From: Stentor roeselii
Lineage: Eukaryota; Ciliophora; Heterotrichea; Heterotrichida; Stentoridae
Assembly (NCBI GenBank): GCA_006503475.1
Contig: RSEH01000033.1
Coordinates: 1-64,000, forward strand
Length of the DNA: 64,000 bases
Reading direction: 5' to 3'
Shown here: positions 9,540 through 39,963 of the stretch, piece by piece
Position numbering within the stretch: position 1 is the first letter of the stretch
Layout of the letters: the number at the start of each line of letters is the position of its first letter
Made by a program: the position numbers and the translations under genes
The notes under the pieces: model-generated
Database searches by the model: none
What the model was told of the DNA's origin: nothing
The model's input: the letters and a program-made list of their open reading frames with translations, nothing else

Positions 9540-10931
9540 ATGGAACTCAAAGAAGTTCAAGACGAGCTCACCAAAATAAAAATAACAGAAGAAATAACAA
9601 CAGTCGAGTTCATAAAAAAAATCTTCGGCAAACACACATCAACTCTTGACATATCAAACCACTACATCTTCGACAAAAGTGCATCAATCCTGGTAAAACT
9701 ACTGAAATCTTACTTTTCCAGCAAAAAAGACTTAAAATCCTTAATCCTTCAGAACTGCATGATTTCCTCTAAATCACTGAAAAAAGTATTAAAAGTCTTG
9801 AACTCTTCAAAGTCATTCAAAAACCTGGACATTTCCAACAACCGATTAGACCTAGACCCTTCCCTGACGACCTCACTTTCCCTTCTCCTGAGCAAGACAA
9901 TGAAGTTAAAATCATTGAAACTTCAAGGCAACATATGCGAGAACTCTCGAGCCTTGGCTGAACTCTTCACATACGACATTCGTTTAACCGAGTTGAACCT
10001 CTACGACACGAACCTGAACTCTGAAAGTCTCACAGTCATTTCAAGCGTCTTGGAAGCGAACAGGACAATCCTAACCTTAAATCTAGGATACAATGACGAA
10101 GCCTTTGAAGACTCTGAAGTAGTCAGGGCCTTCGCCAGCAGTGTAGGTGAAAATCGCTGCATTGAGGAGCTGAACCTAAGCGGAAATGAAAACTTAGGCA
10201 GCACTGATAACCTTAGACAACTTTCAGAAGGTTTAAAGTCCAATAAAAGCTTAGCGGTTTTAAGACTTGGAGGAATCAACCTGGCAGACTTCGGGATCAA
10301 GTTGTTGTCATCGACGCTGCTGCGAGAACTGCCGATCACGTATTTAGACATTCAAAACAACAACATTCAAGACTCAGGGTTCAAGGCTCTGGTGGCTGAC
10401 ATGCCTGAAACGCTTTCAGGACTTGATTTTTCTTATAATTCTGTGAGAGACAATTCGTCTCTTGTGAACTTTTCGCATTTTTTAACTGAAACCAAGTCGC
10501 TGCGCAAACTTAACATGAGTCACTCGTTTGAGTTGGAGACTGTCGAAGGGTCAATCGTTGACCTCTTGTGTGAAAGTTTGAAGAAAAATGACTCGTTGTC
10601 TGATCTCATGTGCGAAGGAGTGAAAATCGCTGATGATCCGGATGCCTTTTGCTTTAAATTGAATCAGGCTATTGGCATGAGGAAGTTGTCTTTGACTTAC
10701 AAGATCTCGGCTGTTAATTGCATTATGAATCGCAGCTCAGTTGTTTCACTTCAGTCTAATGAGAAATCAATGAAGTTTATCAGTAATATACCATCAAACC
10801 TTTCTCAGTTTAAAGAACGTGAGTCGTACTCGCAGACTGCCCGAAATGAATTTGTTGAAACACCGGACCAGGACCCGATAGTAAACACATCGCGTCACTT
10901 TGACATTGACATCAGTAATTCTTATAACTAA
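9540..10931 (+). CDS. leucine-rich-repeat protein (ribonuclease-inhibitor type)
   Basis: Single-exon protein of 463 aa. Repeats with the pattern LxxLxLxxNxL run from about residue 30 to 370 (LKSLILQNC, FKNLDISNNRL, LKSLKLQGN, LTELNLYDTNL, ILTLNLGYN, IEELNLSGN, LAVLRLGG, ITYLDIQNN, LSGLDFSYN, LRKLNMSHS). This is the about 28-residue repeat of RI/NOD-like LRRs, usually a protein-binding horseshoe. The C-terminal tail is Ser/Asn-rich with no domain. There is no signal peptide or membrane segment. Its stop codon overlaps the stop of the convergent beta-adaptin gene by 3 bp. Partner unknown. Confidence 0.85.
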   Translation: MELKEVQDELTKIKITEEITTVEFIKKIFGKHTSTLDISNHYIFDKSASILVKLLKSYFSSKKDLKSLILQNCMISSKSLKKVLKVLNSSKSFKNLDISNNRLDLDPSLTTSLSLLLSKTMKLKSLKLQGNICENSRALAELFTYDIRLTELNLYDTNLNSESLTVISSVLEANRTILTLNLGYNDEAFEDSEVVRAFASSVGENRCIEELNLSGNENLGSTDNLRQLSEGLKSNKSLAVLRLGGINLADFGIKLLSSTLLRELPITYLDIQNNNIQDSGFKALVADMPETLSGLDFSYNSVRDNSSLVNFSHFLTETKSLRKLNMSHSFELETVEGSIVDLLCESLKKNDSLSDLMCEGVKIADDPDAFCFKLNQAIGMRKLSLTYKISAVNCIMNRSSVVSLQSNEKSMKFISNIPSNLSQFKERESYSQTARNEFVETPDQDPIVNTSRHFDIDISNSYN

Positions 10932-13528: not shown

Positions 13529-13552
13529 TTACTAGCCCTTGGAAGATTAATA

Positions 13553-14242
13553 ATGAACAGAGTGCAGAATATTGTTTATGATCTGTCTTTAACTCACCTG
13601 AAAGAGCTGCCAACAGAACTAGCTGTGGCAGGAATGGGAGAAATTTTAATGTCACAATCATGTCAGCCAATGCAAGATATAGAAATGACCCAAGCAGAAA
13701 ATTATTCTAATGAAGAAGAAAATTTCATAGAAATCCACCCGATAGTCTACCAAAACCCATCAATTCAGCATCACCTGATTGAAAACCTAATTAACACGAA
13801 AACAATCGTCAACTCCGAAGAGCGTGAATCAAAAATCACAGAAATCCTATTAAAGCACAATCTTTATTCTTGCTTACCCCGTCTTCTAAAGCCTCTAAAT
13901 AAAACAGATGGTCAAGGTTTTATCTACGCTTATTTCTGCGATGCTTACCCAGGGTGCTTCAAAGTGGGTAGAACTCGAGTACTTCCAACAACTCGAATCC
14001 AAAACCAAGTAAAATCAAACAACCAGTTCTATACAACGAAAAATGCATTTTACTGTCCTTTTCACATGTTAGTAGAAAAGTGCATTCACCTAGAGCTTGC
14101 CCAAGTCCACTTCGAAGCCACTGACTGCACCTTGCAAGGATATACCGAATGGTTCCAAACTGACTGGGAGACTCTTGACAAGAAAATCCGAGGAGTGATC
14201 AAAGCTGTTGAAGAGCTTGTCCTCGCTGGTCTGCTTCAATGA
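13553..14242 (+). CDS. T5orf172 (GIY-YIG-like) domain protein
   Basis: 229 aa, single exon. The C-terminal half (about residues 120-229) has the T5orf172/MUG113 pattern: GFIYAYFCDAYPGCFKVGRT, then TRIQNQ, then KCIHLELAQVHFEA and GYTEWFQTDW. This family is a distant relative of GIY-YIG nucleases and is known from phage, fungal and protist proteins; in eukaryotes its role is mostly unknown. The N-terminal part is acidic and without a domain. Only 24 bp separate it from the divergently transcribed beta-adaptin gene, so the two probably share a promoter. It ends 10 bp before the convergent K+ channel gene. Confidence 0.75.
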   Translation: MNRVQNIVYDLSLTHLKELPTELAVAGMGEILMSQSCQPMQDIEMTQAENYSNEEENFIEIHPIVYQNPSIQHHLIENLINTKTIVNSEERESKITEILLKHNLYSCLPRLLKPLNKTDGQGFIYAYFCDAYPGCFKVGRTRVLPTTRIQNQVKSNNQFYTTKNAFYCPFHMLVEKCIHLELAQVHFEATDCTLQGYTEWFQTDWETLDKKIRGVIKAVEELVLAGLLQ

Positions 14243-14252
14243 GCCTAATAAA

Positions 14253-15497
14253 TCAACTAATTATTAAACGTTTTTGGAATTTTTCAAGTTTCTCTAAAAT
14301 TCTGTCAGCTCTTTGACAGATCATCTCTGTTTTGCTGTTAATGTTTTTCGCTTTGCTGATTGTCAGATGTTCCTGGCAGCTTTCCAAGTTTTTAATTCGA
14401 GAGAATATTCTCAACTTGTTTACTGTGCTTTTCCAGGCGTTTTTGCCTTTGTGACTCTGCTGGTTGTTCACCACTGCTGAGTTTATCGCGTCTGCTGCTC
14501 TTCGTCCGACGATTATTGACTCGTAGGCTTTTTTTTCGTTGGTTTTCAGTTGAAGAACGCTGCTGACTGTCACGAAAGTCAAGGATAAGATGATCCCTCC
14601 CCAGAAGATGCTGAGGACTACGACGGTCCTTCCTAAGACTGAAGTTGCGAAAGTGTCGCCGTAGCCAACGGTGGTCATTGTTATTATTATGTTCCAGCAT
14701 GAGTTCTCGAGTGAGTCGAAGTCTTGGAATGTTGAATATGGCCGCTCGAAGATACGAAGGAGGTAACCGAAGATCAGAACTCCTGGAATTACTAAGAAAA
14801 GAAATAAGACTTGGAGAGGGTAAGCACCGAGGTAACATCTTATTGAAAAAACTGGACTTACTTTTACACCGTATCGCTCTGCACAGAATTGGGCTGTTTC
14901 GGTTTGGAACTTACCGTAGTTTAAGCAGGATAGCAGGAGGATTGCCAGTCTGAAGACCATGAGTGCAAAGCAAACTTCACTCAAATAGTAACAAATTGAG
15001 TGATTTTCATATAAAATTTGTTGAGGAACATAAAATTTTATAGTATCTCCAGGATAAGGAAAAATCGCATAAATGGCCAAAGTAATCCAGATGCCTCCTT
15101 CAAAGAAATGATCAGAAGTTCTTCTTTTTCTCTGCATTTCCATGACTTCCAAAACACTAATCTTATGAGTTGGAGGATTTTCCTTAAATGTCATGGGCAA
15201 GTTTTTCAGCCATTTTAGGTAAATGATGCGATAAGGAATAAGTAGAACTATGGCCAAAAGACTAAGAAGCAAGCAAATAATTCTCGGTAGAATTGAAGCC
15301 TCTTTAATTGAACATTGGCTTGATGTACGCGAAGCAGAATATTTTTCCTCGTAGTCTAAGACAGCTGGAATGATTGCAAGTGACCCACTCACAGCACTGA
15401 GCAGGTACCAAAGCCGCCATTTGTTGAAAAACTCTTGGGACAGTTCCGTGTAGTAAGAAACCTTGTGACTTCCTGCTTGAGCCATTTTTATGGTCAT
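14253..15497 (-). CDS. SK-type calcium-activated potassium channel
   Basis: 414-aa membrane protein with about six hydrophobic segments and a canonical K+ selectivity filter, TMTTVGYGDT (about residue 276), between the last two. S6 continues as GGIILSLTFVTVSSVL, followed by a basic, helical tail (LKTNEKKAYESI) where small-conductance channels bind calmodulin. S4 lacks the regular Arg ladder of voltage-gated channels, again as in SK channels. Likely role: potassium efflux coupled to calcium, which in ciliates shapes membrane potential and ciliary beating. Starts at ATG 15497; a second Met follows four codons later. Confidence 0.85.
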   Translation of the reverse strand: MTIKMAQAGSHKVSYYTELSQEFFNKWRLWYLLSAVSGSLAIIPAVLDYEEKYSASRTSSQCSIKEASILPRIICLLLSLLAIVLLIPYRIIYLKWLKNLPMTFKENPPTHKISVLEVMEMQRKRRTSDHFFEGGIWITLAIYAIFPYPGDTIKFYVPQQILYENHSICYYLSEVCFALMVFRLAILLLSCLNYGKFQTETAQFCAERYGVKVSPVFSIRCYLGAYPLQVLFLFLVIPGVLIFGYLLRIFERPYSTFQDFDSLENSCWNIIITMTTVGYGDTFATSVLGRTVVVLSIFWGGIILSLTFVTVSSVLQLKTNEKKAYESIIVGRRAADAINSAVVNNQQSHKGKNAWKSTVNKLRIFSRIKNLESCQEHLTISKAKNINSKTEMICQRADRILEKLEKFQKRLIIS

Positions 15498-17126: not shown

Positions 17127-17170
17127 TTTATAAAGATTAAACGTCTAGCATTCAAACAATAAAATTTCAT

Positions 17171-17590
17171 CTAACTCTTATAAAAGTTCTTCGACTTCAT
17201 TAGGATACCCAAGTCAATGATGAACGGGGTAAGCACTGTGAAAAACCAGATACTCCAGATTGATTTGTACTCCCAGTCGTTTAGGATGAACCAACTTGTT
17301 AGTACTGTTCCGAGTACGTGAAAAACTGATTGAATCAGATTTCCTGCATCGAAAAATAATGAGTACCCGATGAATAGCATTAGGATCTCGAATGATTGCA
17401 TAAATAGAGTGATGATTAAACAAATGTAAACTGAAATCCGGGCAAGTAATTCATCATCACTCGAGTAATTATCAGGAAGTCCAGTTTCCAAATTCTGTTT
17501 ATAAGTCCAAAAGATACTAATAATCATCAAAACATGACTAATACAAGTCAAGAACTTGACAGGAGCAACACTTTCAGTAATAATTCCCAT
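17171..17590 (-). CDS. TMEM107: TMEM107, ciliary transition-zone membrane protein
   Basis: 139 aa, matching the about 140 aa of animal TMEM107, with four membrane segments. Diagnostic similarity includes PVKFLTCISHVLMIISIFW at the N-terminus, a helix ending in FDAGNLIQSVFHVLGT, then WFILNDWEYKSIWSIWFF and a final helix before KSKNFYKS. TMEM107 belongs to the MKS complex that gates membrane proteins into cilia, fitting a heavily ciliated cell. The start codon is 12 bp from the start of the divergent LSM7 gene, so the whole bidirectional promoter must be tiny or overlap coding sequence. Confidence 0.85.
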   Translation of the reverse strand: MGIITESVAPVKFLTCISHVLMIISIFWTYKQNLETGLPDNYSSDDELLARISVYICLIITLFMQSFEILMLFIGYSLFFDAGNLIQSVFHVLGTVLTSWFILNDWEYKSIWSIWFFTVLTPFIIDLGILMKSKNFYKS

Positions 17591-17602
17591 ATTTTATTAA
17601 AA

Positions 17603-17848: not shown

Positions 17849-19189
17849 CTACCCGATTCTCTCATCTTCAATAATCCTTACTTTTTCAACCGCTTGTAGG
17901 AACTTCTCGCACCAGAGGTCTTTATCGGCCTGTCCTTCAGTTAACAAGTGCAACTCGCGTTCGGGGTTTGTGAAGTAAAGGTGAAGAACGTTTTTATTGT
18001 CTTTTTTCAGGTCTATTGAAGAACTTCCTGTTATTCTTAATACTTTTTTTGCGAGTTTTTCTTGTTTGCTTTTGAAAAAACTTAAAGTTGAGGCTCGTAG
18101 CACCACCCATCGTGACTTCAACTTCTGAGATGCCCATTTTCTTCCTTGTTGTTTTAAGATTCCTTCGTGAATCTTTTCTCCTGCATATTCAATTGAACTC
18201 TTTACGTTGCAGTATGTTAGCTCTGATTGGTCTACTTCGAGTGTAGGGAACTCAGTGCCTAGAGCGAGTATCAGATGACGACAACAAGAAATCGCATGAT
18301 ACCACTCAATAACCTCATCAGTTTTCACAGCACAAAGCTGAACAGAATTTTCATTATCCTCAACATGTACATTAATGCAAAGTTTTCCATTATTACCAAC
18401 AAAAAGAGAAATATCATTGATATCTTCAATATTGATAGTTTTTTCAGTAATTTGAAGACTTCCAATAGAATGAAAGTCGATTTGTTTATTCTGAATAATG
18501 ACCCACTTCCTTCCAATATACCCACTAGCCAGTACATCCAAAGGTCCTCTCAAATGAGGATGAGGAAGACTCTGCAAATACAATTTCCTCAAACAAGCAT
18601 CATGCAAAGAACTATCACTTAAATTCGAGCTTGGACAGATAATATCATAAATTCTATCAACTCTCATCCACTTACTTCCAAGAACCGGGTGCCAAATAAA
18701 GCTATCTCTAAACAAAAGCCTTTTATCTTCAATCATTTTTCGAATCGCTCTTCTATTATAAGGTCCCTTTGCCCAGGGTGTTTCCCTTGAGACCTCATCA
18801 ATGAAGTACCACATTTCATTAAAATCATACTGCGGCTTCCTTTTGATCGCTTCCCTTGAAAACTGCTGCTTCTCATACTTGGCTTCAATGAACCAGTCAC
18901 GGACAAGGCTGTTTGAAACTTACTGATTATTGTTGTATTTGAGAGAAATCGTCCATTGCATCACGTTTTTCATCAAAGCCGAGTTGGACTTGACGTTTCC
19001 CTGCTTATTTATATAACTTATCTCTTCTTCATTCAGCTCATCCAAGTTCCTGCAAGGAATCTTCAGAATCCGCTGATGCGCCTTCGCACATTCAGCACAC
19101 AAAGTAATTCCTTTGTCCATATTCGCGTTAGTCACATTTTCACTGTCACAGTCAGCACAGTTCTTATTGTCTTGCAAAAGGTTTTCCAT
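17849..19189 (-). CDS. ArfGAP zinc-finger protein with tryptophan-rich insert and PH domain
   Basis: Two exons joined across a 15-nt intron at 18909-18923 (gtaagtttcaaacag) give 441 aa. The N-terminal ArfGAP-like domain shows CADCDS, GITLCAECAKAHQ, NVMQW and, across the intron, LVRDWFIEAKYEKQQF, the conserved end of ArfGAP folds. Next comes MWYFIDEVSRETPWAKGPY...RDSFIWHPVL, which resembles a GYF-2-like domain. The C-terminal 100 residues are a PH domain (GILKQQGRKWASQKLKSRWVV ... LWCEKFLQAVE). Role: probably Arf regulation at phosphoinositide membranes. Oddity: the usual GIHR arginine finger reads AKAHQR, shifted by one residue, so GAP activity is uncertain. The start is only 3 bp from the stop of the upstream kelch-BTB gene. 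Confidence 0.82.
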
Positions 19190-19192
19190 TTA

Positions 19193-20698
19193 TTACTGCT
19201 TAAGCAAACCTAAAAGCTGGTCAGGAGCCAAAAGCATGGCAGCTTCTTTTAAGTGAGACTTGACGTAATCTAAACATTTCACCCGAACAGCAGGAATGTC
19301 TCCAACAGTTTCTAAAACAATTCTTAAGTTCGAAGGAGAAACATTTAAAGACCGAAGACATTTAATTTCAAGTTCTTCCACATCTAACCAATGTGCAGCT
19401 CGAAAAAGCTGTAAAAAAGTTGAAGATTCTTTAGGAAGGTCGATTGAGCAGTCTGAGTAAAGCTGTTCGATTAGAATTTGAATGACTATTGCAGGGAATT
19501 CAGATATTGAGATCGTTTTTATCCCTCGGGTCAGTTGTTTTTTTAGAAGGTTCGAATATTTGCAGAGTACTTTTCGATGTGCGTGGATTTTATTTTCGCT
19601 TACTTTGATCAGCACGTCTGAAGTGCCCTGGTTGTTGAAAAAGCTCTGAATGTGGATTACTGGGTAGTCAGGGAGAGGGTCGGAAGGTACAAGGATCCAA
19701 GCTTTTTCAAGGTTGAGTTTGAATAAAGAAGGGCCTTCTGAAGTGTTTCCGAATAAATAAAGGTACTTGTCTAGTAATTGCATTGTGCTCTGACCTTTTA
19801 GTTTTGGAGATTTCAGACTTTTCTTTAGTTTGTGCCAACAGACGGAGTGGAACTCGTATCTGTAGATCTTTTCTTCGTAGTAAACGTACATTATCTGTGA
19901 AGAGGCTGCCATTGTGTGACCTGTCATCGCTGGTATCACGAAGTTTGCCGCTCGGTAGTTTATTTTACTCCATTTGTCTATTTGAAGGTCGTATTCGTAG
20001 AGGTCGTTTGTGTTGCTGAATAAAAGTTACAAACTGTCGAAGACTGAACTTGTTAGGCACTCAGGGTTTAAGAGAGAGTCTTCGACCATTGTTCCTCCGA
20101 AGATAAAAATTGAGTTTCCTACTTTCGCTGTACTATGGCCTGACCTGCATCCAGTCATCGGTGCATGTGGTTTAGTCGCAGGAAAGATTCCCGAGTAGTC
20201 AATATTATTCCATTCTTTGCTTTCTAAATCCAATTTATAAACAAAGCTTCCAGTGGCATCCCCTCTATACATTTGAAGCCCGCCAAAGAAGTAAAGCGAC
20301 GATGAGTGATAAACACAACTAAGCGGCGGTTTGCGTTGTTTAGGAGCGATTCCAGTGGTAGTAAGAATCATTCCAGTATTAGTTTCAAGTGAATACTCAA
20401 TAACCTGATACCTAAAATCTGAGTTTTCAGGCAAGGCCAACAAATAAATCAAGCTTTGGCCGTCAGTAGTTGGATGCTGTCCTTGAACAGGCCGTATTTC
20501 CAATGAAAACTTTTCCGGGCTTGTAGGACTCAGCTGAAACTCAAGCATGTCCAGGACTTGGCCACTGGAAGACTTGCCAGTCACAAAGAGCTTGTTGCCA
20601 AGAAGGACAGACTCAGGTTCAAGTACTTCATTTATATGCAGCAGTGAGCTTAGAGGGATTTTTTTCCAAAAGCTGAATTTTACTTCTTCAGTGGTCAT
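19193..20698 (-). CDS. kelch-repeat / BTB protein
   Basis: 496 aa from two exons; the 15-nt intron is 20016-20030 (gtaacttttattcag), and its removal bridges an in-frame stop inside a kelch blade. Residues 1 to about 280 carry kelch repeats (YFFGGLQMYRG, WNNIDYSG, MTGCRSGHSTAKVGNSIFIF, LYEYDLQIDKWSKI, YLFGNTSEG). A BTB domain follows (SDVLIKVSENKIHAHRKVLC ... ILIEQLYSDCSIDL) with a short BACK-like tail. Such proteins commonly recruit substrates to Cul3 ubiquitin ligases, though here the propeller precedes the BTB (as in LZTR1-like and Rab9-effector-like proteins). Starts divergently from the P4-ATPase, 78 bp away. Confidence 0.9.
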
Positions 20699-25251: not shown

Positions 25252-26020
25252 TTAATTCAAAGTACTAACCGGCCGATCAGGTAGTAACTTAATACCATCT
25301 CCACAAATATCAATCCTATTCACAAGTTTTCTAAATTCCAACTCATCCACCTCACCCTGAATCCCTTTTTTTTTCTTCAAATTCACAGAAAACTTTTCAT
25401 CATCAATCAAATCAAAAGCAACAACCTTAAAGCTTTTTCCAATCCTATAAACTTCAACTAAATAACTTCTTCCATTAATAATTTTCCCTTGTCGATGCAT
25501 GAGCTGTTCTGAAATCACATTTTTCTTTCCACGTTTAAAAAAACAAGTACTGCTCATCTTTTTAGCCTCTGGGGACTGTTTGAACTCAGAAATAATCGAC
25601 AAGACTTTTTCAGTTTCTTTTCTTTCAATGTTGAACTTTTGGATCTGATAAGCACTTTCTTTTCTTTTTATTCTTTCAAATAATTTCAAATTTTCTTCAG
25701 TGATTTCTTTGATTTTTCGCTTTCTTGAATCACGGTTCAAACTTTTTGCCTGTGATTTTGAATTGAAGGATGGGCTTTGGTTGTTGATGTTGAAGATTTT
25801 TTCATAGAGAATACGATTTTCCCTTTCGATTTCTGTGCATCTTTCTATATAAACCGTCACCTTCTTGGTTGAAGACTTTTTTGCCGTTTGAGACGCGAGA
25901 TGTGAAAGAGCCTGGAGGACTCATATCGACCACTGGTTTCATGGTTTTCAGGCGAATTTCATGAAGGTTTCTTAATTTCGCGTATTCTCGTCTTGAGACA
26001 ACTTTATTGCCAACGATCAT
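25252..26020 (-). CDS. CFAP97D1-like: CFAP97D1-like (hemingway/KIAA1430 family) ciliary protein
   Basis: 250 aa from two exons. The intron at 25845-25860 (gtgacggtttatatag) is 16 nt, so it would shift the frame if retained; removing it joins KKVFNQE to ERCTEIERENRILYEKI. The family signature is clear: RLKTMKPVVDMSPPGSF, then the ERxxxIERENRILxxKI helix of CFAP97D1/hemingway proteins. Members are needed for cilia or flagella formation in animals. The C-terminal part is basic with a short beta-rich end. It lies 15 bp downstream of, and is cut from the same strand as, the TPR gene start-to-stop row. Confidence 0.8.
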
Positions 26021-26035
26021 ATTATTACCCTTACA

Positions 26036-29000
26036 TTAATCATTACATATAAGTTTAATCTTCTCATCAATGTTCAGTTCCAAGTTTTCCTTATCATTGA
26101 TCCTCTGAATGCTTTTTTCACTCAAAAAGCTTTTTTGTCTAAAAATATTCTGAGACTTCGCCGGTACTCGAAGTTCTTTTTTCGCATTTTTCTCGAGTTG
26201 GTCTTCTTCAGTGACCAAATCATTGACCTCGATAAACCCATCAGTGAACTGAATAGAGCCTTTGACCCTTAACAGCCAAGGCGCTTCAGGTCTTGGCGAA
26301 ATATTTTCAATTCCAAAATAATTCAAAAGATGTTCTGCCAGGTCCTCAAAGCCCTGTTCAATCACAGGATGAGGCAAAACAATCGCTGGACGAATGGAAA
26401 CCGTTGGCAACTGGTCAACATTAATCGAAATCAAAGGAAAAATCGAAGAAAACTCATTTGCAGTATGCAAAGGCAAGATCTGCACTTCTTGATTATCTAA
26501 AAAAGGAGAAAGTGTTTCAGAATCTGACTTTATCGCTTCTTTCATCAATTTTTCTGCCTTTTTCTTGTTCTTTTGAGTGATATGTAAAAGTGCTGATAAA
26601 AACAAAAGCTGACCTTTATGCTTTTCATTCAAAACTTCAGAAAGTTCTTCGAAGATCATCAATGCGTTTGACTTTGAATCGTCTTTTGTGCTTTTAAAGC
26701 TGCAAAGGGCAAGATTGTAAAGAATTTCACAGTTTTCTTCTTCGATCGTGATACTGTCAGCGAAAATCTCGGGCTCTTCATCGTGAAGGATTTCGAGAAC
26801 TGACTGGAAACAGTTGCTTGCTGATTGGAAGTCGTTGTTGTAAAGGAAAATCACTCCTGCCATCCAAGATGAGTATTTTTTGTTGAAAATTGAACCGAAG
26901 TCGAGACTGATTTCTTTTGCTAGGCTTAAATGTTTGTAGATTTGGGATGGGGACGTGGATAAGTCTTGTAAAAAATTTATTATTCGTAAGTCTTGATGGC
27001 TTTCGCTTGGTAAGGACTGAAGAGAGATTTTAGCATTTTTGAAGTCGTTTTGAAGTAAATGGTTTTGAGATAATAGTCTTGGGTCAGGCTTTATCCCACT
27101 TCCTTCAATTTTCTCAAGTGCATGCATAGCTTCAAGAGCCTCCTTCGGATATCCAACAACAGTTAACAATTTCGCAATCTTCAATTGAAAAATCGCATCC
27201 TTCGGAAATTTTTCCTGTGCCAATTTAAGATCATCAATAGCAAGTTGCAAGTCATCCTGCAAGAATGCACAAATCGCTCGAAAAATGTAAATTTCCTGCA
27301 AATCCTCCTTAAGCTGAAGACAAATAGTTAAATCCTGAATCGCTTCTTCATACTTCTTAAGGCAAATATTACTAAAAGCTCGATTAACATAATGACTGGC
27401 AATATTTTCATCAGCTTTTTCAATAGTTTTTTTCGCATTTTCATAAGATCCAATATAATCCTTGCACAAAAAGTTTATAATTGACTTGAAAAAAAAGACT
27501 TCACTTTCAGGTTCTCTTGATTTTAGAGACTTGTCAATTAAACCTTCTGCTTTATCTAAAAGACTCGTGTCAGGCTTTCCTTTTCGGCTTTGTTTTACAA
27601 GAATAGCAGCTCTGCATAAGTCTGGCATAATATTTCTTGGAAATAATTTTTTACAGTTCTTGAGAAGCTCAGCGGCTGTCAGATGATCGCCTCGAGATTC
27701 ACTGAGAAGAGCTTCCGAGACAGTCATGTTAAACTCACTGGCTTTTTCAATCACTTTTAAACTTGCACTTTTTTTAAAGTCTTCCAAAGCGGCTTTGTAG
27801 TTTTTTAAGGAAAAATAAGCAAAACCGCGATTTTCATAACTTTCGCCGAGAAAATCATGGAGAAAAGGTTCACTTGTTGAAATGATTTCTGTGAAGATTT
27901 GGATACCTTCTTCAAGTTTTCGCTTCATGAGGCAGATGACGCCTTCTGTGTATTTATGAAAAGCTTTTAACTCTTTACTCTGCCCAAGTTCGACACTTCT
28001 TTCAAAAGTATGAAGGGCTCCATAAAAATCACGTTCTTTTATTTTAAGTTTTCCGATATGAAGAAGTGACTTGTTAACCAACTCAGAATCATTGTTTCCT
28101 TGAATGACTTGTTCAAAGCATAAAACCGCATCAGTGTATTTATGTTGATCGATGCAAGTCAAGCCTTTGAAAAAAAACACGCTGGTCTCTTCAGGCCATT
28201 TTTTGATGACTTTTTGAATACTTTTCAAACAACTTTCAAGTTTTTTCGTTTCGTAGTCAACTTTTACCTTTAACAAGGCAGCTCTGACACTTTTTTCTCC
28301 TCGATTTCTTAAAATATTCAGAGCTTTCATAGCAGAGTCGTATTCTTTCAAGCCGATGTAAGACTCGGCTATGTGAATTATTACATTCGAGCTATTTTTT
28401 TCTACATTGAGGACTTTATTAAAGTCTCTAAGTGCTTTTTCATATTTTTTGGCTTTATTGTAAATTTGTCCTCTTAAAAGAAATCCTTGGGAAAAGTTAG
28501 GAAATTTCCTTAGACCTTTATTTAACACCTTAAGGCCTAAAGAGTGCTTTCCAGTATAATTATAACACATGTAAAGCGCAATGTAAAGCTGCTTGTCAAA
28601 GCCCGGGTCTACTTCAAAAACCACTAAAAAGTCCTTAATCGCCAGTTCATACTTCTCCAAATGCATAAAAGAAACTCCTCGACTATAAAGTGCTTCAAGG
28701 TTCATTCCATCATTTTTCAAGCATCTTCCAAGTAACTCCGTTGCTTTTTCATAATTTCCTTCAGTCATTTCCGCTTTAGCTGATTCAAGAACAGCGAACT
28801 CTCGAGTACTAATCAAGACTTTTCCTGAATTCTTTAAAGATTTACTAGTTCTCGTTTTAAGCTTTCCTGAAAAGTCTCGAGTCTTATCAAATGAAGAGGC
28901 TCGAGAGTGCTTCGGGGCACTTTTGTCTTTATAACAAATGAATGACTTGTTCGTTGTAGGGGTGAATTTCTTTCTAATAATCGGTGTCTGTGATGCAGGC

Positions 29001-29154: not shown

Positions 29155-30663
29155 TTAATGACTAGCTAGTCTCGATTTGATTCTTTCTAAAATCTCTGCT
29201 GCTTTCGGCACGTCTAAGACAAGACTTCCCAAGTTGCTTTGAACCCGGCTTAGCCCTAGCTCGATCTGGTCAGGAAGAAGGAAACCTGTGATTTGAGCGT
29301 CGTTTAACAGTTGAATGACTAGAAACTCTTGACTTTGTCCTTTGTCCATCACGGTCTCTACAAGTTTTTTCACGAACTCGTGCATGTAGTGCTTGCATGA
29401 TAACTCTTTTAAACAGTCTTCAGCGTTTTTTAGGTCTTTACTGTCGAAAAGCTCGGAAATTATCGCTTTGAATTGGGATTTGTAGTCTTCTAGAGTAACA
29501 CCTTGAGGACCCCAGACGCTTTCTAAACTGGTAAAGGCCTCTCGGGGTCTTAGAAGGTAATGAGCGTCCATTAGGATACTGGTTTCGAGTTCTGGGTTCA
29601 TCAATACTTCAGCTTCTTGGACGTAATTCGCGGGTAGTGAGTCGTCGACCACTGCACGTGCGATGAACTTGCTAACCAAATCAGCAGTTCCAGGTACATC
29701 AATAAAAAGTTCATGCGAATTCCACAGCAAATCATCAAAACCCTCCACCAAAGCTTCAGGTCCACAACACCCTGAAATTTCCGCTAAAAGTCTACTACAT
29801 AATTCCTTTTCAAAATTTCTTCGATCTAAAGCAAGTTCCACAGCTTTTCTAACAACAAGAGACCCAAGCCATTTGTTATTCCTGAGAAAATCCGCGACTC
29901 CATCACTAACTCCAGTGGCAAGATATTCTTTCAACAGTTGTAAAACATTTTCCTTAATCGTAGGAAGACTTTCGACGAGGTCCGCAAGGACCAAGTCTCC
30001 TTGTTTGACTTCTCTTAAGACATATGAACCACGGCCAAGGTTGAAGACTTGCAGAGGCACTCGAAGTACTGAAGAAGGACTGAGCACTCCTTTTATTATC
30101 AACTTGCTGAGCAAAGAAAGGACTGTCTCTGGCGAGTTGGGCACATCTGTAAGCAGCTCCGGCATCAGACGGTAAAGACGGTCGAAACCTCTTCGAATCT
30201 CTCGAGATGTGAACAGCTTCGCTGAATGAAGCAAGTCGATCAAACCGAAGGCCACCTCGTATTCGGAATCTGTTTTTTCTAAGGAGACTTGAAGAGTTCG
30301 GGCAAAGATAAAACTGTGCAGCTTTGCACGGTTTAGGGAACGAATCCAGGAGATAAAACTTGAGTAGGTTACTTCTGTGAAGACTTGGTCTACCTTCGTT
30401 CGAGTCTCTTTTTTTAGATCTAGCTCGTCGAAGTGGAAGTGATCTGGAGTTACTTGTACTGACGATGAGCCTACTAAAAAACTTTTTGCAGGCGACTGAT
30501 GGACAGAATTATTTCCTGATTGAACTTCGAAACTACTTTCAGACGCATAGTTAGGATCATTCTTATCCTCAACTATAGTTCGATAATTATTCGCAGTATC
30601 ATCAGCTCGCCCCCAGGTGAACATTCCTCCGCCTCCTCCCTTTTTAGGTTCACCGGGTTTCAT
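29155..30663 (-). CDS. PDCD4-like: MA3-domain protein, PDCD4-like
   Basis: 502 aa, single exon. Three MA3 (eIF4G-like) helical modules can be recognised: about residues 95-210 (FISWIRSLNRAKLHSFIFAR ... FDRLYRLMPELLTDVPNSPE), 230-355 (VADFLRNNKWLGSLVVRKAV ... FDDLLWNSHELFIDVPGTAD) and 390-500 (NAEDCLKELSCKHYMHEFVK ... LGSLVLDVPKAAEI). The repeated LDxP/VDVP motif after each module is typical of PDCD4 and plant MRF proteins, which bind eIF4A and repress cap-dependent translation. The N-terminus is Gly/Lys-rich (PKKGGGGGMFTWGRADD). Confidence 0.88.
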   Translation of the reverse strand: MKPGEPKKGGGGGMFTWGRADDTANNYRTIVEDKNDPNYASESSFEVQSGNNSVHQSPAKSFLVGSSSVQVTPDHFHFDELDLKKETRTKVDQVFTEVTYSSFISWIRSLNRAKLHSFIFARTLQVSLEKTDSEYEVAFGLIDLLHSAKLFTSREIRRGFDRLYRLMPELLTDVPNSPETVLSLLSKLIIKGVLSPSSVLRVPLQVFNLGRGSYVLREVKQGDLVLADLVESLPTIKENVLQLLKEYLATGVSDGVADFLRNNKWLGSLVVRKAVELALDRRNFEKELCSRLLAEISGCCGPEALVEGFDDLLWNSHELFIDVPGTADLVSKFIARAVVDDSLPANYVQEAEVLMNPELETSILMDAHYLLRPREAFTSLESVWGPQGVTLEDYKSQFKAIISELFDSKDLKNAEDCLKELSCKHYMHEFVKKLVETVMDKGQSQEFLVIQLLNDAQITGFLLPDQIELGLSRVQSNLGSLVLDVPKAAEILERIKSRLASH

Positions 30664-33903: not shown

Positions 33904-35232
33904 ATGGGATCTTCTTGTGGAATACTAAAACCAAAAGAAGAAGAAGGTCAAGTAGTAATTCCAATAAAAGCCAAGCGTTTCCTAAGATCAGCGCCTCCTC
34001 CAGACGAGCAAGAAGCGAAATTCGGTAAATACTTCGCAGAGTCTTCATCAAGTAAACCTTTCCTAAAGCAATGGCAGAAGCTTCTCTTCACCCAAGAGTC
34101 CGCGATATTAAAACACGACAAAAAGTTCATAAAAGAATTCCATTCCTACACCTTTCGTGGAATTCCAAACGAATTCCGATGGCGAGTATGGACAAATCAG
34201 TTAATGCACGAAAAGCATTACTCAGAAGACAGCTACTTTCACATCCCACCAGCAGGAGAGCCTCATCTATCAACAATAAAAAGAGACCTTGACCGTAGTT
34301 TCCCTTCTGAGGCTTATTTTGATTTAGCTCAGTTTGGACTGACAGGTCAACAAGCTTTAGAACGAATTTTATCAAAGTTTGCATTTAAGTACCCAGAAGT
34401 CGGTTATTGTCAAGGAATGAATTTTTTAGCTGGTTTTTTGTTGCTTGTTTCAGGAGGGGCTGAAATTGAAGTCTTTCAGTTTTTCGAGGTTTTATTTAAA
34501 ACTTTTCAATTGGATGGCTTTTTCAAGGAAGGCATGGAAGGACTGAAGGAACATATCTGGATTGCGAAAAGACTTATTAAGAAAATACACCCGAAAATTT
34601 CTGAACATTTTGAAAGAGAATGTATTCCGGATGATCTTTGGCTTTTTAAGTGGATTATGACGGTTTTTACTATGATTTTACCTTCTAATGTACTGGTTAG
34701 GGTTTGGGATTTGTTTTTGTTCAAAGGATTTAGAGTTGTTTATAAAGTGGTTTTGGCTATTTTAGCTATTTCGCAGGAGGATTTGTTGGCCAGGGACTCG
34801 GGAGAGATATGTACTTATTTGGCTGGGATTCGTGAGAGGATCACGAGTTCTGAGGAGCTGTTCAAACAACTTCGAATCATCAAACTATCAAAGGATCAAA
34901 TGGAAAAGTTCGGAAAGCAACATCAAGTCATTAGTAAAAACCAATTCATTCCTGTTCTAAAAGCAGAAGAGCAGGATGTCAAACTCCCCCCTCTAAGAAT
35001 CAATAGAAATAAAGTCAAGGTTTTGCAGCCTCTTTCCAAGACACCTGTCTTGAAGAGAGCTCTAAGCGGCATTATTAAAAATAACTTGATTGGCATGAAT
35101 AGTCCTTTAACTGCTCGGCCAAGTAAAGTACCTCATTTGCCTGATATTAACTTAAGGAGAACTTTGGTTAAGAAGAAAAGTTTTGGAGTCACTAATAAAA
35201 GCTGGGAAATTTCATTGAAGAAGTCGTTGTGA
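33904..35232 (+). CDS. TBC-domain Rab GTPase-activating protein
   Basis: 442 aa, single exon. The TBC domain covers about residues 80-310. It shows the R-finger motif as IKRDLDRSFP and the Q-finger motif as GYCQGMNFLAGFLLL, plus RGIPNEFRWRVW at its start and FKWIMTVFTMILPSNVLVRVW in the second half. Both catalytic fingers are present, so GAP activity is expected; the Rab target is unknown. The N-terminus MGSSCG could be myristoylated and palmitoylated. The tail after about residue 320 is basic and unstructured. A decayed duplicate lies 1.5 kb upstream. Confidence 0.92.
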   Translation: MGSSCGILKPKEEEGQVVIPIKAKRFLRSAPPPDEQEAKFGKYFAESSSSKPFLKQWQKLLFTQESAILKHDKKFIKEFHSYTFRGIPNEFRWRVWTNQLMHEKHYSEDSYFHIPPAGEPHLSTIKRDLDRSFPSEAYFDLAQFGLTGQQALERILSKFAFKYPEVGYCQGMNFLAGFLLLVSGGAEIEVFQFFEVLFKTFQLDGFFKEGMEGLKEHIWIAKRLIKKIHPKISEHFERECIPDDLWLFKWIMTVFTMILPSNVLVRVWDLFLFKGFRVVYKVVLAILAISQEDLLARDSGEICTYLAGIRERITSSEELFKQLRIIKLSKDQMEKFGKQHQVISKNQFIPVLKAEEQDVKLPPLRINRNKVKVLQPLSKTPVLKRALSGIIKNNLIGMNSPLTARPSKVPHLPDINLRRTLVKKKSFGVTNKSWEISLKKSL

Positions 35233-35737
35233 GAATTGAGAAGTATTTAAATTAAGATGGAATATTGATGTATTGAAGAGTTTTAGATGTGTTTGGAGTG
35301 TTTGAAATTATCATTTGGGTTAATTGTTGGTATTGATTAGTTTATTGCAGAGTGAGATAAGTGGAGTAGAATTATTGATTGATTATTTTTATTAGTTTTT
35401 TATAATAGTATTGCTGTAGAGAAAGATAGATGTTATAGAAAATTGATATTTTATATGAATTTATAGATTATAATAATTTATGGATATTTCGATTAACTTT
35501 CTAATTAATATATAGATATGATCAAATACATGAAACATTTAGTAATCAAATAATTCGATTATTTTAATTATAGAATATGGATCTTCTCTACTTAATATTG
35601 ACTGGTTCTTTTTATACTGAAAATTAGCAAAATTCAGGTAATAGTGAATCATAATCATTTGATTCAAAGCTTCAACCCACAATAAACAAAAAACATTCAT
35701 AAAAAATTCCCTTTCTAACCATTTAAAATATAAAAGC
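35233..35737. other. AT-rich intergenic region
   Basis: Between two same-strand genes. T/G-rich near the TBC stop and A/C-rich near the next start; no frame, RNA or repeat recognised. Confidence 0.55.
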
Positions 35738-37033
35738 ATGAAAGTCACCGTTCTAGGTTCAGGAATCAGTGGTCTATCAGCTGCATTTTTTGCAGTCCAA
35801 GCTGGTTTAAAAGTTCATCTAGTAATTTCCATCTAGATAACCGGTTCAATAGGTGGGTTGACCTCAACAATATACGACAACGGGTGGGAATTCGACATTG
35901 GTCCTCAAATGATAAAGCTTTCCCCAGCATCAGTTTCAATCCTGGACATAGCAGTTCTTTTAAATTTGACCTCAGAAAGTATTCCTTACTAAGTCCAAAC
36001 CTCTTCTTTAGATTCTGACGACAAGCAAGTTTTCTTCAATAAAAAGTTAAGGCCTTATTCATATCGTCCAGTTGATTTCCAGTCCTTTTCACAAGATTCT
36101 CCGTTATTATCGAATCAATCATCATTACAAGATGAAAGCATTCATTCATTCCAAGAGAAAATGATGAAATCTCAAAGTGCTTCAGAACGCGATTATTTCC
36201 TGAACGTGTTACTTGACGCGACAGTTCTTTCTTATTATTCAGTCGGAGCAAGACAAGTCTCTGCAAGGTCTTCAAACATGACATCTTCAGCTTACTTCAA
36301 ACATTACAACATAAAAAACCCACAAGTTTATAAATACAAGGCTAAGACTTCTGAATCACTTTTCATTTTAAATCAATTTTTTGCATCTGGAGTAAAAAGC
36401 TTTCGATTTAAAGGAGGATGGAAAACTTTGACAAATTCTTTAATTTCGTATCTTTCTTCTAAGTCTTGCATTATTAGTGAAAATTTTGTGGAGTCTGTTT
36501 CTATGATGAAAGAAGTCACTCTTGATAATGGCTCTGTTTATGGTTTTGATTTTTTGGTTTCTTCTTTGAATTCTGAAGGACTTTCAAAGGTTATGCCTGG
36601 GGTTTCGGTTGATATTCCTCATGCGAATTGGAGTGTTTTGAACTTGGGATATGAAAATCGGCCGAAATTAGAGGGATTTGGATATGCTGTTCCTGGGATT
36701 GAAAATTCGAAGATTTTTGCTGTGATTTTTAATTACAATTGTTTTAAAGAAAATAAGGCTACTGTGACTGTGCTTGGAAGAGGGGAATATGATGAGATGA
36801 TTAAAGAGTTGCTGATACAAACTGGACTTCCTTACCCTTCAACAGGAATAGGCCGAATTCTTCATTCAGGTTCCTCAATCTATTCATTAGGCCACTACCA
36901 TAATCTCTCAAAACTTCAAAACCTTCCAGACTGGTTATCAGTAATAGGCCACAGTTTCCACCACAGCGGAATTCCATCTTGCATAATCCGTTCAGACGAG
37001 TCAATAACCCGAATAACCTCAAAAAACCCTTAA
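35738..37033 (+). CDS. PPOX: protoporphyrinogen oxidase (FAD-dependent)
   Basis: Three exons (35738-35821, 35837-35978, 35994-37033) joined across two 15-nt introns (gtaatttccatctag and gtattccttactaag) give 421 aa. The N-terminal dinucleotide fold is VLGSGISGLSAAFFAVQAG, followed by GGLTSTIYDNGWEFDIGP, the PPOX/amine-oxidase signature. Later matches to PPOX include DESIHSF, FKGGWKTL, LGHYHNL and the C-terminal GHSFHHSGIPSCI near the FAD. The enzyme oxidises protoporphyrinogen IX to protoporphyrin IX, the penultimate step of haem synthesis, usually at mitochondria. It is shorter than human PPOX (477 aa). The stop codon lies in the first unit of the minisatellite. Confidence 0.85.
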
Positions 37034-37216: not shown

Positions 37217-37224
37217 ACCCTTCC

Positions 37225-37875: not shown

Positions 37876-37905
37876 TATTTTTAAGTTTTTAAAGGACTTT
37901 ATCAT

Positions 37906-38084
37906 CGATTTTAGAAAAAAAATATTTCAGTTTTTATCTTTTCTTTGATTTTAAGGGACCATAAAAGTAAGTCTTTTAAATCCTTTCCAAAAATCTTACT
38001 CAATAAAAACTCTAAAAAATCCTAATTTTCCATTTCCTTCAATCAAACCTTAAATTTTGATTGCTAGTTGAAACATGGCTAAAA
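37906..38084. promoter_or_regulatory. divergent intergenic region (shared upstream region)
   Basis: About 180 bp between the start of the methyltransferase and the start of the 5-phosphatase gene, AT-rich. No motif can be named; by position it must carry both upstream regions. Confidence 0.4.
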
Positions 38085-39401
38085 ATGGAATCACCAGCAC
38101 CCTGCATAGAAGAGACAAAAAAATCCAGCATTCAAAAAAATTCAGTCCTCTCAATGCAAGAATCGAAAACCCCTGAAGCGATTCCATTATCAACAAGTGC
38201 AAAAGATTTTCTTTATGAAGAAGATTCTAAAAAACAAGAAGCGAATCGTCTTCAAAGTTACTCAGAAGGAATAGACCTTCCAACTGATAACATCGCAGAA
38301 GACATTCGAAGCCGGTCTTCTTCTTCTGATTCTAACCAAGCAGTGCCTTTGGATGAAGGAATAGCTGAAGCCTCTCAACAACACCTTGGAGAACAGTCAA
38401 TTAGAAAGAAGGTCAATATTCTTCCACCTGTTCATTGGGAACACAAACCACTGCCTAGTCCGAATTCTTCAAAGAAAATCAGGATTTTTTCAATGACTTG
38501 GAATATGTTCGGAAAGCCGCCGCCTGATGATATTTCGATTCTCTTCCCGAAGTACTCGAAACATCATGTTTATATTATTGTCACTCAGGAATGTCTTCGG
38601 TCTATTGGAACTTCACTTTTTTACTCTTCGAAAAAAACATGGGAAGTAAAATTGCAAGAATGTCTTGGACAAGATTATAACTTGTATGCTGCTAACACCT
38701 TAGGAGCGACACATATCGCGATTTTTATTCATTTTTCAATGAAGAATATTATTTCTACACCTTGTCTTCAGAAGGTATCGACTGGGTTTGGAAATGTGGT
38801 TAGGAATAAAGGAGCTGTTGGGGTTAAGTTTGTTGTGGGAAGTACCTCGGTGTTGGTTGTTGGATGTCATTTGGCCTCGGGGCAAAATAATGTGGTAAAC
38901 CGAAACAACGATTTCAGAAGAATCGAAAAAGAGCTCTTCAAAGATGTTTCCAGTCAACCAGCTTCCGAGCTTTGCGACGTCTGCATATATTTAGGAGACT
39001 TGAACTACCGAATAAACGGAATCAGAAGAGACGTTGAAAATCTTTTAGATCTTGAAATTTTAGACCCACTTCGCAAAGGAGACCAGCTTTTGAAAGAACT
39101 TCTTCAAAACACTTTATTTGCTGGGTTTCAAGAAGGTCCGTTGGTGTTTGACCCTACTTATCGATATGACATCGGGACTAATGTTTTTGACACTTCAAAG
39201 AAACAAAGAGTTCCCGGGTGGACTGACAGGGTGCTTTACAAGAGCAAAGGATTTAAAATGGTGCAGAAAAGTTATAATAGTCTTCCTTCTTCACTTACTT
39301 CTGACCATCGCCCGGTCTTTGCACAGTTTAAGTTGAAGTATGAGGATTATGTACAGAGTACTAATAAAAGTACTAATTCAAGAACATGCCAAGTGTTTTA
39401 A
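38085..39401 (+). CDS. inositol polyphosphate 5-phosphatase with CaaX tail
   Basis: From the first ATG (38085) the protein has 438 aa. The N-terminal about 125 residues are disordered and Ser/Glu-rich. The catalytic domain follows: FSMTWNMFGKPPPDD, VTQECLRS, GAVGVKF, GCHLASGQ, IYLGDLNYRI, PGWTDRVLYK, LTSDHRPVFAQF, which are the two signature motifs and the active-site Asn/Asp/His. It removes the 5-phosphate of PI(4,5)P2 or PI(3,4,5)P3. The last four residues, CQVF, form a CaaX prenylation box. INPP5E, the ciliary 5-phosphatase, has the same layout, but orthology is not shown. The DUSP gene starts 7 bp after the stop. Confidence 0.9.
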   Translation: MESPAPCIEETKKSSIQKNSVLSMQESKTPEAIPLSTSAKDFLYEEDSKKQEANRLQSYSEGIDLPTDNIAEDIRSRSSSSDSNQAVPLDEGIAEASQQHLGEQSIRKKVNILPPVHWEHKPLPSPNSSKKIRIFSMTWNMFGKPPPDDISILFPKYSKHHVYIIVTQECLRSIGTSLFYSSKKTWEVKLQECLGQDYNLYAANTLGATHIAIFIHFSMKNIISTPCLQKVSTGFGNVVRNKGAVGVKFVVGSTSVLVVGCHLASGQNNVVNRNNDFRRIEKELFKDVSSQPASELCDVCIYLGDLNYRINGIRRDVENLLDLEILDPLRKGDQLLKELLQNTLFAGFQEGPLVFDPTYRYDIGTNVFDTSKKQRVPGWTDRVLYKSKGFKMVQKSYNSLPSSLTSDHRPVFAQFKLKYEDYVQSTNKSTNSRTCQVF

Positions 39402-39408
39402 TAAGTAA

Positions 39409-39963
39409 ATGGAAAACCCTGATATACTCACTGAACTTAGTAAGGAAGAGGTTAAGTTTGATATTGTTAATGAACTTATGAAGAAAATCAGGACTATGAT
39501 GATTATTAAGCATTGTAAAGAGGATAATTTACCGAATGAAGTCATTCCTGGATTGTTTATAGGGTCCATCGGTTCAGCAATGAACAAAACAATCTTACAA
39601 GAGCTAGGAATAACCCACATATTATGTGTTGCAGAAGGAATCGAGCCTCCATACCCAAACGACTTCATCTACAAACAAATAAAAGTATTAGATTCCGCAG
39701 AAGTATCTCTAGCCCCTCACCTTGAAAGCTGCTTCGACTTCATCTGTTTCGGCCTCGCAGCAGGTAAAATCCTTGTTCATTGGTAAAGCCTATTCAGCTT
39801 TGCAGGGAAGAGCAGGTCAGCTTCAGTAGTGATCGCCTTTCTAATGAGAGTAAACCACTGGAATTTCCAAGAAGCTTTCAGTCATTTAAAGGAAAAAAGA
39901 CCAGTCGTCGAGCCGAACCCTGGATTCGTCGCGCAATTGAAAGCATTAGATAAGGAAATTTAA
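39409..39963 (+). CDS. dual-specificity protein phosphatase
   Basis: Two exons across the 15-nt intron 39783-39797 (gtaaagcctattcag) give 179 aa. The intron splits the active site between H and C: ILVHC-FAGKSRSAS matches HCxxGxxRS with catalytic Cys and Arg. The general-acid Asp region is VLDSAEVSLAPHLESCFDFI. The domain start NEVIPGLFIGSIGSAMN and LGITHILCVAEG are typical of atypical DUSPs. If the intron were retained, translation would stop just before the catalytic Cys. Substrate unknown. Starts 7 bp after the 5-phosphatase stop. Confidence 0.9.

What the first reader, a model, noticed from the sequence alone, without database searches (positions are those of the whole stretch)
10900..39600. 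Repeated abrupt switches from keto-rich (G/T) to amino-rich (A/C) on the + strand
Reading the + strand, long stretches drift to G/T-rich and then switch within tens of bases to A/C-rich. Clear examples are near 10940, 13540, 14980, 18272, 20190, 22065, 29680, 34861, 36820 and 38895, with weaker ones near 17450, 26030 and 27090. The switches lie inside genes on either strand (22065 in a + gene, 18272 in a - gene), so gene direction does not explain them. A G/T-to-A/C change has the same form on both strands. Several neighbouring switches are about 1.9-2.1 kb apart (18272, 20190, 22065; 34861, 36820, 38895). This could mark replication-fork geometry in the amplified macronucleus, or another directional mutation process.
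Basis: seen in the sequence. Interest (0 to 1): 0.7.

Follow-up and report, generated by a model that had tools for sequence, protein, structure and literature searches.

The report
Kilobase-scale strand-bias sawtooth in ciliate DNA
In this ciliate genome the silent letters of genes flip from G/T-rich to A/C-rich every one to two thousand bases, whichever way the genes run, as if a one-sided mutation process has been acting on both flanks of very many fixed sites; if so, the DNA holds a readable record of where it is repeatedly opened or broken.

Summary
At silent and noncoding positions, + strand G/T excess (K) builds up and drops to A/C excess (M) over tens of bases, in genes of either direction. 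Calls at z>=3.5 (250-bp flanks): 118 K->M and 96 M->K in 264 kb, about 8 each in shuffles. K->M is sharper: 39 versus 8 at z>=5 (200-bp flanks). Synonymous-codon shuffling destroys the fit (1255 to at most 115), so proteins and per-gene codon use do not explain it. At called sites fourfold GC skew goes from about +0.4 to -0.57 with GC content near constant (inflated by selection of sites). Each site has a halo fading out by about 550 bp. No motif was found, and diverged paralogs switch elsewhere. The host looks like a heterotrich macronucleus. Favoured mechanism, inferred: strand-specific mutagenesis of 3' single-stranded flanks at recurrent germline breaks; strand layout and bases match human meiotic-break mutations. 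Rivals: dense fixed replication origins; excised germline elements. Special 2-kb spacing and fork geometry are weakly supported. Reader site 10940 is not confirmed.

The parts
17449..17451 (.). K->M switch site (point estimate; uncertainty tens of bp, as for all sites below)
   Evidence: z 4.1 at 17450; silent-site z 2.7
18272..18275 (.). K->M switch inside a - strand ORF (17849-18814)
   Evidence: z 6.3 at 18274; z 5.6
20190..20200 (.). K->M switch inside a - strand ORF (20027-20698)
   Evidence: z 4.0 at 20200; z only 1.8 at 20190
22064..22066 (.). K->M switch inside the + strand ORF 20777-24388 (P-type ATPase by eye: DKTGT motif, recalled)
   Evidence: z 4.1 at 22065; third-position profile; z 2.8
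13540..13609 (.). K->M switch at or just after the gap between ORFs 10928-13528(-) and 13553-14242(+)
   Evidence: z 4.6 at 13609; z 1.3 at 13540
14957..14980 (.). K->M switch inside a - strand ion-channel ORF (14253-15497)
   Evidence: z 4.0 at 14957; z 3.0; Pfam
25995..26030 (.). weak K->M switch
   Evidence: z 3.6 at 25995; z 1.8 at 26030
27090..27119 (.). K->M switch inside a - strand TPR-protein ORF (26036-29086)
   Evidence: z 6.3 at 27119; z 4.4; Pfam
29665..29680 (.). K->M switch inside a - strand MA3-domain ORF (29155-30663)
   Evidence: z 4.9 at 29665; z 3.4; Pfam
34860..34861 (.). K->M switch inside a + strand RabGAP ORF (33904-35232)
   Evidence: z 4.5 at 34860; z 4.2; Pfam
36814..36820 (.). 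K->M switch inside a + strand ORF (36161-37033)
   Evidence: z 7.1 at 36814; z 4.6
38894..38896 (.). K->M switch inside a + strand ORF (38061-39401)
   Evidence: z 4.5 at 38895; z 5.4
   Evidence: z 5.6 at 39523
   Evidence: z 5.1 at 35500
   Evidence: z 5.5 at 9508
63059..63065 (.). further K->M switch near the window end
   Evidence: z 5.5 at 63062
63322..64000 (-). window part of a 10.2-kb uninterrupted ORF (C237:63322-73536, -) whose third positions show several sawteeth
   Evidence: profile; K->M calls at 65547, 66318, 68470, 69255, 69675, 71326

Best explanation
The sawtooth is the footprint of a strand-asymmetric mutation process anchored at many fixed, apparently randomly spaced sites (0.45 per kb called at z>=3.5; 0.83 per kb in the fitted model, which is a soft count). 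On each flank the strand that runs 5'->3' into the site is poor in A and C and rich in T and G; the effect is greatest at the site and fades out by about 550 bp. SHOWN: the footprint, its polarity, its halo, its independence of gene strand, protein sequence and GC content, its presence on the sampled contigs (weak on most of C100) and in loci from other contigs, and different switch positions in diverged paralogs. INFERRED: that mutation made it, and that the sites are recurrent germline double-strand breaks (for example Spo11-type meiotic breaks) whose 5' ends are resected, leaving about 0.5-kb 3' single strands; damage and error-prone re-synthesis of that strand removes A and C, so composition flips at the break.
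For: Geometry and bases: fourfold sites are T .48-.50, G .20-.21, A .21-.23, C .07-.09 in the 250 bp left of a called switch and the mirror on the right, GC .27-.30, in + and - ORFs alike and more weakly in noncoding DNA (sites were chosen by this contrast, so its size is inflated). Human meiotic breaks show the same form: C>N and A>N on the forward strand, G>N and T>N on the reverse, with single strands left of the break on the forward strand and right of it on the reverse (passages of PMC7615360). Fixed-length halo: 700-bp triangle 1620, 450-bp box 1613, exponential 1580, interval-scaled ramp 1576; in the 37 of 87 strong sites lying wholly in coding DNA the mean goes from +0.50 beside the switch to about zero near 550 bp, mirrored on the right. 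A transition of tens of bp on average (17 of 118 sites were best fitted by a one-base step) suits a break cluster. Random-like spacing. Position turnover between paralogs. One Spo11/TopoVI-A N-domain hit over cut-off in the genome. Silent amplitude is somewhat higher where GC12 and GC3 are higher (rho 0.49 and 0.40, 45 blocks). Not protein or codon preference: 1255 versus at most 115 in 20 synonymous shuffles.
Against: No map of breaks, origins or germline DNA was available. The density, with 78 of 116 classified sites inside ORFs, is higher and more intragenic than Spo11 hotspot maps I recall. There is no consistent GC rise at the sites, as biased gene conversion might give. No motif was found. 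Paralog differences at fourfold sites are transversion-rich, with A/T the commonest type in 6 of 7 pairs, not all independent, so simple cytosine deamination is not enough. Gly GGT and Arg CGT codons run against the trend. Some fully coding DNA shows almost no wave (C100:5-10 kb). Four of 21 further loci favour the mirror form. The step from single-strand exposure to this bias is analogy.
Confidence: 0.4

Rival explanations
1. K->M sites are very dense fixed replication origins; the leading strand is A/C-rich and forks meet in between.
For: In S. cerevisiae, K. lactis and C. [quoted passage not shown] human origins also carry local skew jumps (passages of PMC9645720). A sharp jump with gradual return is the expected shape, and the ramp has full amplitude in intervals of 600-1300 bp.
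Against: The reported yeast origin GC-skew jump is about 9%; at called sites here it is about 99 points (0.417 to -0.572 at fourfold sites; inflated by site selection). An interval-scaled ramp fits worse than a fixed halo (1576 versus 1620). Origins 1-2 kb apart have no precedent known to me (recalled).
Confidence: 0.2
2. K->M sites are the scars of germline-limited elements (IESs) that are cut out of the macronucleus; the skew arises in the germline from a process that starts or ends at the element, which is why no motif is left in the assembly.
For: Density and placement are near those of Blepharisma: 39,799 IESs on 41 Mb and about 70% intragenic where genes cover 77% (PMC9942856 section 5), versus 0.45-0.83 sites per kb and 78 of 116 (67%) inside ORFs that cover about 73% of bases. 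Positions differ between paralogs; spacing looks random; no motif.
Against: TA is not enriched at the switches (low power). The average transition is tens of bp wide, not a single junction. No PiggyBac transposase domain was found in the genome, but no control rang, so absence is not shown. Breaks made during macronuclear development are somatic and should not be inherited (recalled). No germline copy was seen; the search for one is uninformative because it did not list even the window's own locus.
Confidence: 0.2
3. Transcription-linked skew: coding-strand bias or R-loops of genes or of pervasive noncoding transcription.
For: ORF starts are slightly M-rich and ORF ends slightly K-rich on the coding strand; 38 of 116 K->M but only 9 of 95 M->K calls are intergenic.
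Against: Most K->M calls lie inside ORFs at all relative positions; ORFs of both strands show the same + strand flip; a 10.2-kb ORF carries several teeth.
Confidence: 0.1
4. Artefact of amino-acid composition, codon preference or chance.
For: A small protein-level shift accompanies the wave.
Against: Synonymous shuffles keep proteins and per-gene codon sets and lose the signal (20 shuffles); shuffles give about 8 calls against 118 (5 shuffles); block shuffles fit 188-320 against 1567 (3 shuffles); it is seen in 17 of 21 further loci and in noncoding DNA.
Confidence: 0.02

Closest known systems
Strand-asymmetric mutation at human meiotic DSB hotspots (PMC7615360, passages seen)
   Same: C and A are lost on one strand on one side and G and T on the other side of a fixed point; the flanks are single-stranded after resection.
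   Different: There it is an excess of new mutations in hotspots covering about 2% of the genome; here standing silent-site composition is shifted and fitted segments cover 149 of 264 kb. Breaks were not measured here.
Replication-origin skew jumps in yeasts and human (PMC3459929, PMC9645720, passages seen)
   Same: Abrupt flip of both GC and TA skew at a point with a gradual return; yeast polarity (A/C-rich leading strand) matches if K->M is an origin.
   Different: Jump of about 9% and inter-origin distances of about 40 kb in S. cerevisiae; here a jump of about 99 points at called sites, spacing near 1 kb and a fixed-length halo.
Candida albicans centromere skew jump (PMC3459929, passages seen)
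   Same: Very large local GC-skew jump (74%) over a few kb that its author judged not to be replication.
   Different: At centromeres only, versus 118 calls in a 264-kb sample here.
Subtelomeric composition bias of Nyctotherus, spirotrichs and Halteria (PMC2633312, PMC1805493, PMC7858049, passages seen)
   Same: Strand-related bias in ciliate somatic DNA, strand-symmetric at the ends in Nyctotherus.
   Different: Purine/pyrimidine bias (Nyctotherus, spirotrichs) or GC skew (Halteria) beside telomeres, over roughly 50-130 bp where a length is given; here it is keto/amino, purine content stays near one half, and sites are internal.
IESs of Blepharisma stoltei (PMC9942856, section 5 and passages seen)
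   Same: Order of density, intragenic fraction.
   Different: No insertion has been observed here and no TA preference at the sites; the paper's main text has 0 occurrences of 'skew'.

Membership tests
Meiotic DSB-hotspot mutational asymmetry | Strand-asymmetric loss of C and A on the 3'-ended single strand on each flank | tested here: met
   composition at fourfold sites (standing composition, not new mutations); reference pattern
Meiotic DSB-hotspot mutational asymmetry | Breaks occur at these sites in the germline | not testable with these tools
   no break map; only a Spo11/TopoVI-A-like domain was found
Meiotic DSB-hotspot mutational asymmetry | Footprint length set by resection, not by distance to the next site | tested here: met
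   fixed halo 1620 versus interval-scaled 1576; single long intervals go either way
Meiotic DSB-hotspot mutational asymmetry | GC rise at sites from biased gene conversion (often seen, not obligatory; recalled) | tested here: not met
   no consistent GC rise at third positions or in noncoding DNA
Replication-origin skew domain | Abrupt GC and TA skew flip with a ramp to the next site | tested here: met
Replication-origin skew domain | Ramp scales with inter-origin distance | tested here: inconclusive
   fixed halo fits better, but single long intervals go either way
Replication-origin skew domain | Replication starts at the sites | not testable with these tools
   no replication data
IES junction | TA (PiggyBac-type) at the junction | tested here: inconclusive
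   no TA enrichment, but break points are known only to about 36 bp (median perplexity), so power is low
IES junction | Insertion present in the micronuclear genome | not testable with these tools
   no germline sequence; one search is uninformative (own locus not listed)
Ciliate subtelomeric purine skew | Purine/pyrimidine bias | tested here: not met
   third-position purine fraction .43-.54 while the keto fraction runs .74 to .28
Transcription-strand skew | Sign follows gene strand | tested here: not met
Heterotrich macronuclear genome (host) | CCCTAACA telomeres, 15-nt introns | tested here: met
   547 overlapping matches of three repeats (220 forward, 327 reverse; read-backwards control 0), several listed ones at contig starts (C26, C40, C48, C56, C70); 22 frame-joining GT..AG stretches of 15 nt against 1-8 at each other length from 12 to 20; reference PMC9942806 section 5. 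Species not identified.

The most novel reading that the evidence does not exclude
The silent positions of a whole nuclear genome are a base-composition record of tens of thousands (extrapolated) of programmed germline cut sites, roughly one per one to two kilobases and specified by nothing left in the macronuclear sequence (a very dense break programme, or excised germline elements), strong enough to reset codon usage and nudge protein composition.
Probability: 0.3. Interest if true: 0.92.

Novelty: new variant of a known kind. Interest (0 to 1): 0.8.

Why it matters
Strand asymmetry at origins and break hotspots is known, but in the cases I saw it is weak or local. Here it reshapes silent sites over much of the sampled sequence at kilobase scale: for example GAT is 86% of Asp codons on the fitted K side and 27% on the M side. 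That offers positions, polarity and reach of an unknown process directly from sequence, so the open questions of where heterotrich germline DNA is broken, replicated or edited become testable by laying one break, origin or micronuclear map over the predicted sites. It also warns that codon-usage, phylogenetic and gene-finding models that assume one composition per gene may mislead in this genome.

Tried and rejected
Gene direction or amino-acid composition: rejected. A gene-intrinsic pattern (RNA structure, domains): rejected, since diverged paralogs have switches elsewhere: 15 pairwise profile correlations among six P4-ATPase-like genes run from -0.39 to 0.43, AP-beta pair r -0.24; a younger tandem pair (27% fourfold difference) shares its profile (r 0.84) while the third copy (47-49% difference) has its own (r -0.03, -0.16). 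A second set of three related genes on C1 gave r 0.26-0.71 over 8-9 bins, too short to judge.

Regular spacing: a full-ramp model rejected Poisson spacing (chi-square 214-281 versus 88 for the best gamma), but with a fixed halo Poisson simulations give similar spread (CV 0.68-0.73 at means 800-1000 bp versus 0.71 observed). Those simulations had stronger sites than the real data (fits 4203-5499 versus 1620), so I claim no regularity. The 219 fitted sites are a soft count: block shuffles also yield 83-110 segments, with small gains.

Motif: nothing survives; CCTAAG (10 versus 1.7 expected; p 2e-4 among 1268 words) is not significant after correction. Pure cytosine deamination: I first favoured it because GC stays constant; transversion-rich paralog differences made me drop it as the sole cause. 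The first transition-width test used one shared amplitude and was redone with free amplitude. In the halo comparison the best box amplitude lay at the edge of the tested grid. PiggyBac search: no hit, controls silent. Search for a second, interrupted copy of the region: uninformative.

Full report
What was checked. The window is the first 64 kb of a 210-kb contig in a 44.4-Mb, 522-contig genome. The host looks like a heterotrich ciliate macronucleus: long ORFs under the standard code, CCCTAACA telomere repeats, several of the listed ones at contig starts, and 15-nt introns: 22 frame-joining GT..AG stretches of 15 nt against 1-8 at each other length from 12 to 20. Blepharisma stoltei has the same telomere unit and predominantly 15/16-bp introns but reads UGA as Trp (PMC9942806 section 5). 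I did not identify the species.

The pattern is in silent positions. Profiles of third codon positions rise and fall several times inside single ORFs while positions 1+2 stay much flatter. Third-position autocorrelation is positive to about 300 bp, negative around 510 bp (z -4.7) and weakly positive near 1.0 kb (z 1.6) and 2.0 kb (z 3.0). Calling steps on third positions plus noncoding bases in 264 kb gave 118 K->M and 96 M->K steps at z>=3.5 with 250-bp flanks; five shuffles gave means of 8.0 and 8.6. With 200-bp flanks K->M dominates at high stringency: 71/35, 39/8, 9/0 at z>=4, 5, 6; with 300-bp flanks less so: 84/74, 49/30, 26/4. With free site amplitude, K->M transitions are best described by a 40-80 bp scale and M->K by about 150 bp, although best widths of single sites are widely spread. 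In the window itself 29 K->M calls were made; the parts list gives 16 of them.

It is not chance, protein or codon preference. A segment model (K->M sharp, halo 700 bp) fitted to coding third positions gains 1255 log units, its mirror 1065. Twenty synonymous-codon shuffles that preserve every protein and each gene's codon set reach at most 115 and 110, and their up-minus-down difference has sd 9.5 and maximum 24.5 against 190 observed; on C237 alone the figures are 408 and 365. Twenty-one further loci (80.4 kb, fetched for other reasons; L001 and L030 left out because they repeat the window) gave 704 versus 547, with 17 of 21 favouring the K->M-sharp form and 4 the mirror. Some of these 21 are paralogs of window genes at other loci.

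Size and base identity. Left of a called switch fourfold sites are T .48-.50, G .20-.21, A .21-.23, C .07-.09; right of it the mirror (A .49, C .19-.21, T .24, G .06-.07). GC stays at .27-.30. ORFs of both strands agree; noncoding DNA agrees more weakly. These sites were picked by the same contrast, so the size is inflated. Codon tables for fitted K and M stretches flip: GAT 86% to 27% of Asp, CAG 63% to 17% of Gln, TTG 39% to 6% of Leu. Gly GGT moves the other way (12% to 31%) and Arg CGT too (6% to 18%); I cannot explain that. In noncoding DNA GGG:CCC is 166:6 on the K strand. Amino-acid frequencies shift a little (Val .067 to .041, Ser .083 to .115).

Shape. In the 37 of 87 strong sites (z>=4) that lie wholly in coding DNA the mean falls nearly linearly from +0.50 beside the switch to about zero near 550 bp on the left, and mirrors that on the right. 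Fixed-length halos fit better (triangle 700 bp 1620; box 450 bp 1613) than a ramp scaled to the interval (1576) or an exponential (1580). Single long intervals do not decide. Sites number 118 by the z>=3.5 call (0.45 per kb) and 219 in the fitted model (0.83 per kb; median spacing 900 bp, CV 0.71); the second number is soft because shuffles also yield weak segments. The signal is strong in many gene-dense blocks, and weak at the sampled contig starts and over most of C100, including one fully coding block, C100:5-10 kb.

Placement. Of 116 classified K->M searches are in ORFs (67%; ORFs cover about 73% of bases) and 38 intergenic; of 95 M->K searches are in ORFs. Within ORFs K->M positions are spread evenly; ORF starts lean to M and ends to K. 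No motif or TA preference was found; break points are known to about 36 bp (median), which limits power. Diverged paralogs switch elsewhere. In the window's tandem trio the younger pair shares its profile, while the third copy, at 47-49% fourfold difference, has a switch of its own. So a switch can appear at full strength before silent sites saturate (inference).

What it most likely is. The strand whose 3' end points at the site is poor in A and C on both flanks. This is the geometry of 3' overhangs at a resected break, and human meiotic-break mutations have the same base identities and strand layout (passages of PMC7615360). A fixed halo of about 0.5 kb, a transition tens of bases wide and random-like placement also suit break clusters. 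One Spo11/TopoVI-A-like domain is present. Against it stand the density, the mostly intragenic sites, the missing GC rise, and the transversion-rich differences between paralogs, which point to error-prone synthesis or replication rather than simple deamination. The break reading is an inference (0.4). Dense origins (0.2) and excised germline elements (0.2) are live; the latter is attractive because Blepharisma carries 39,799 IESs on 41 Mb, about 70% of them intragenic, near the density and placement here.

Literature. Ten searches of the held open library (several show only part of their matches, 15 of 267) listed no title on such a sawtooth in a ciliate. I saw the listings, some passages and two sections, no whole paper; many subscription papers, and Prescott and Dizick 2000, are not held. 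So 'unreported' is limited to that. No eukaryote genome collection was available to test Stentor or Blepharisma.

Noticed in passing
window 43485-46604, 47413-50082, 52695-55982 (+): Tandem trio of related large ORFs (46-57% aa identity; the first and third have Laminin_G_3 matches below Pfam's cut-off, the second was not scanned), useful as an internal clock for switch turnover.
   Followed up: yes
Codon families on the K and M sides, 264-kb sample: Gly GGT and Arg CGT run against the T-up/K-side trend (GGT 12% on K side, 31% on M side), although GGT is K-enriched in noncoding DNA; unexplained.
   Followed up: partly
5-kb blocks of C237, C1, C50, C100: Sawtooth amplitude correlates with block GC (rho 0.72 over 52 blocks, confounded with coding density) and is weak at the sampled contig starts and on most of C100.
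   Followed up: partly
C237:63322-73536 (-): A 10.2-kb uninterrupted ORF runs off the window's right end; protein not searched.
   Followed up: no
around K->M switches: CCTAAG/CTTAGG is mildly enriched within 40 bp (10 versus 1.7 expected, in 9 of 87 sites); not significant after correction.
   Followed up: partly
4-fold sites of paralog pairs: Transversions outnumber transitions in 7 of 7 pairs examined (not all independent), with A/T the commonest type in 6 of 7: an unusual silent spectrum.
   Followed up: partly
G000 whole genome: No PiggyBac (PF13843) domain found, unlike Blepharisma; no control rang, so absence is not shown.
   Followed up: no
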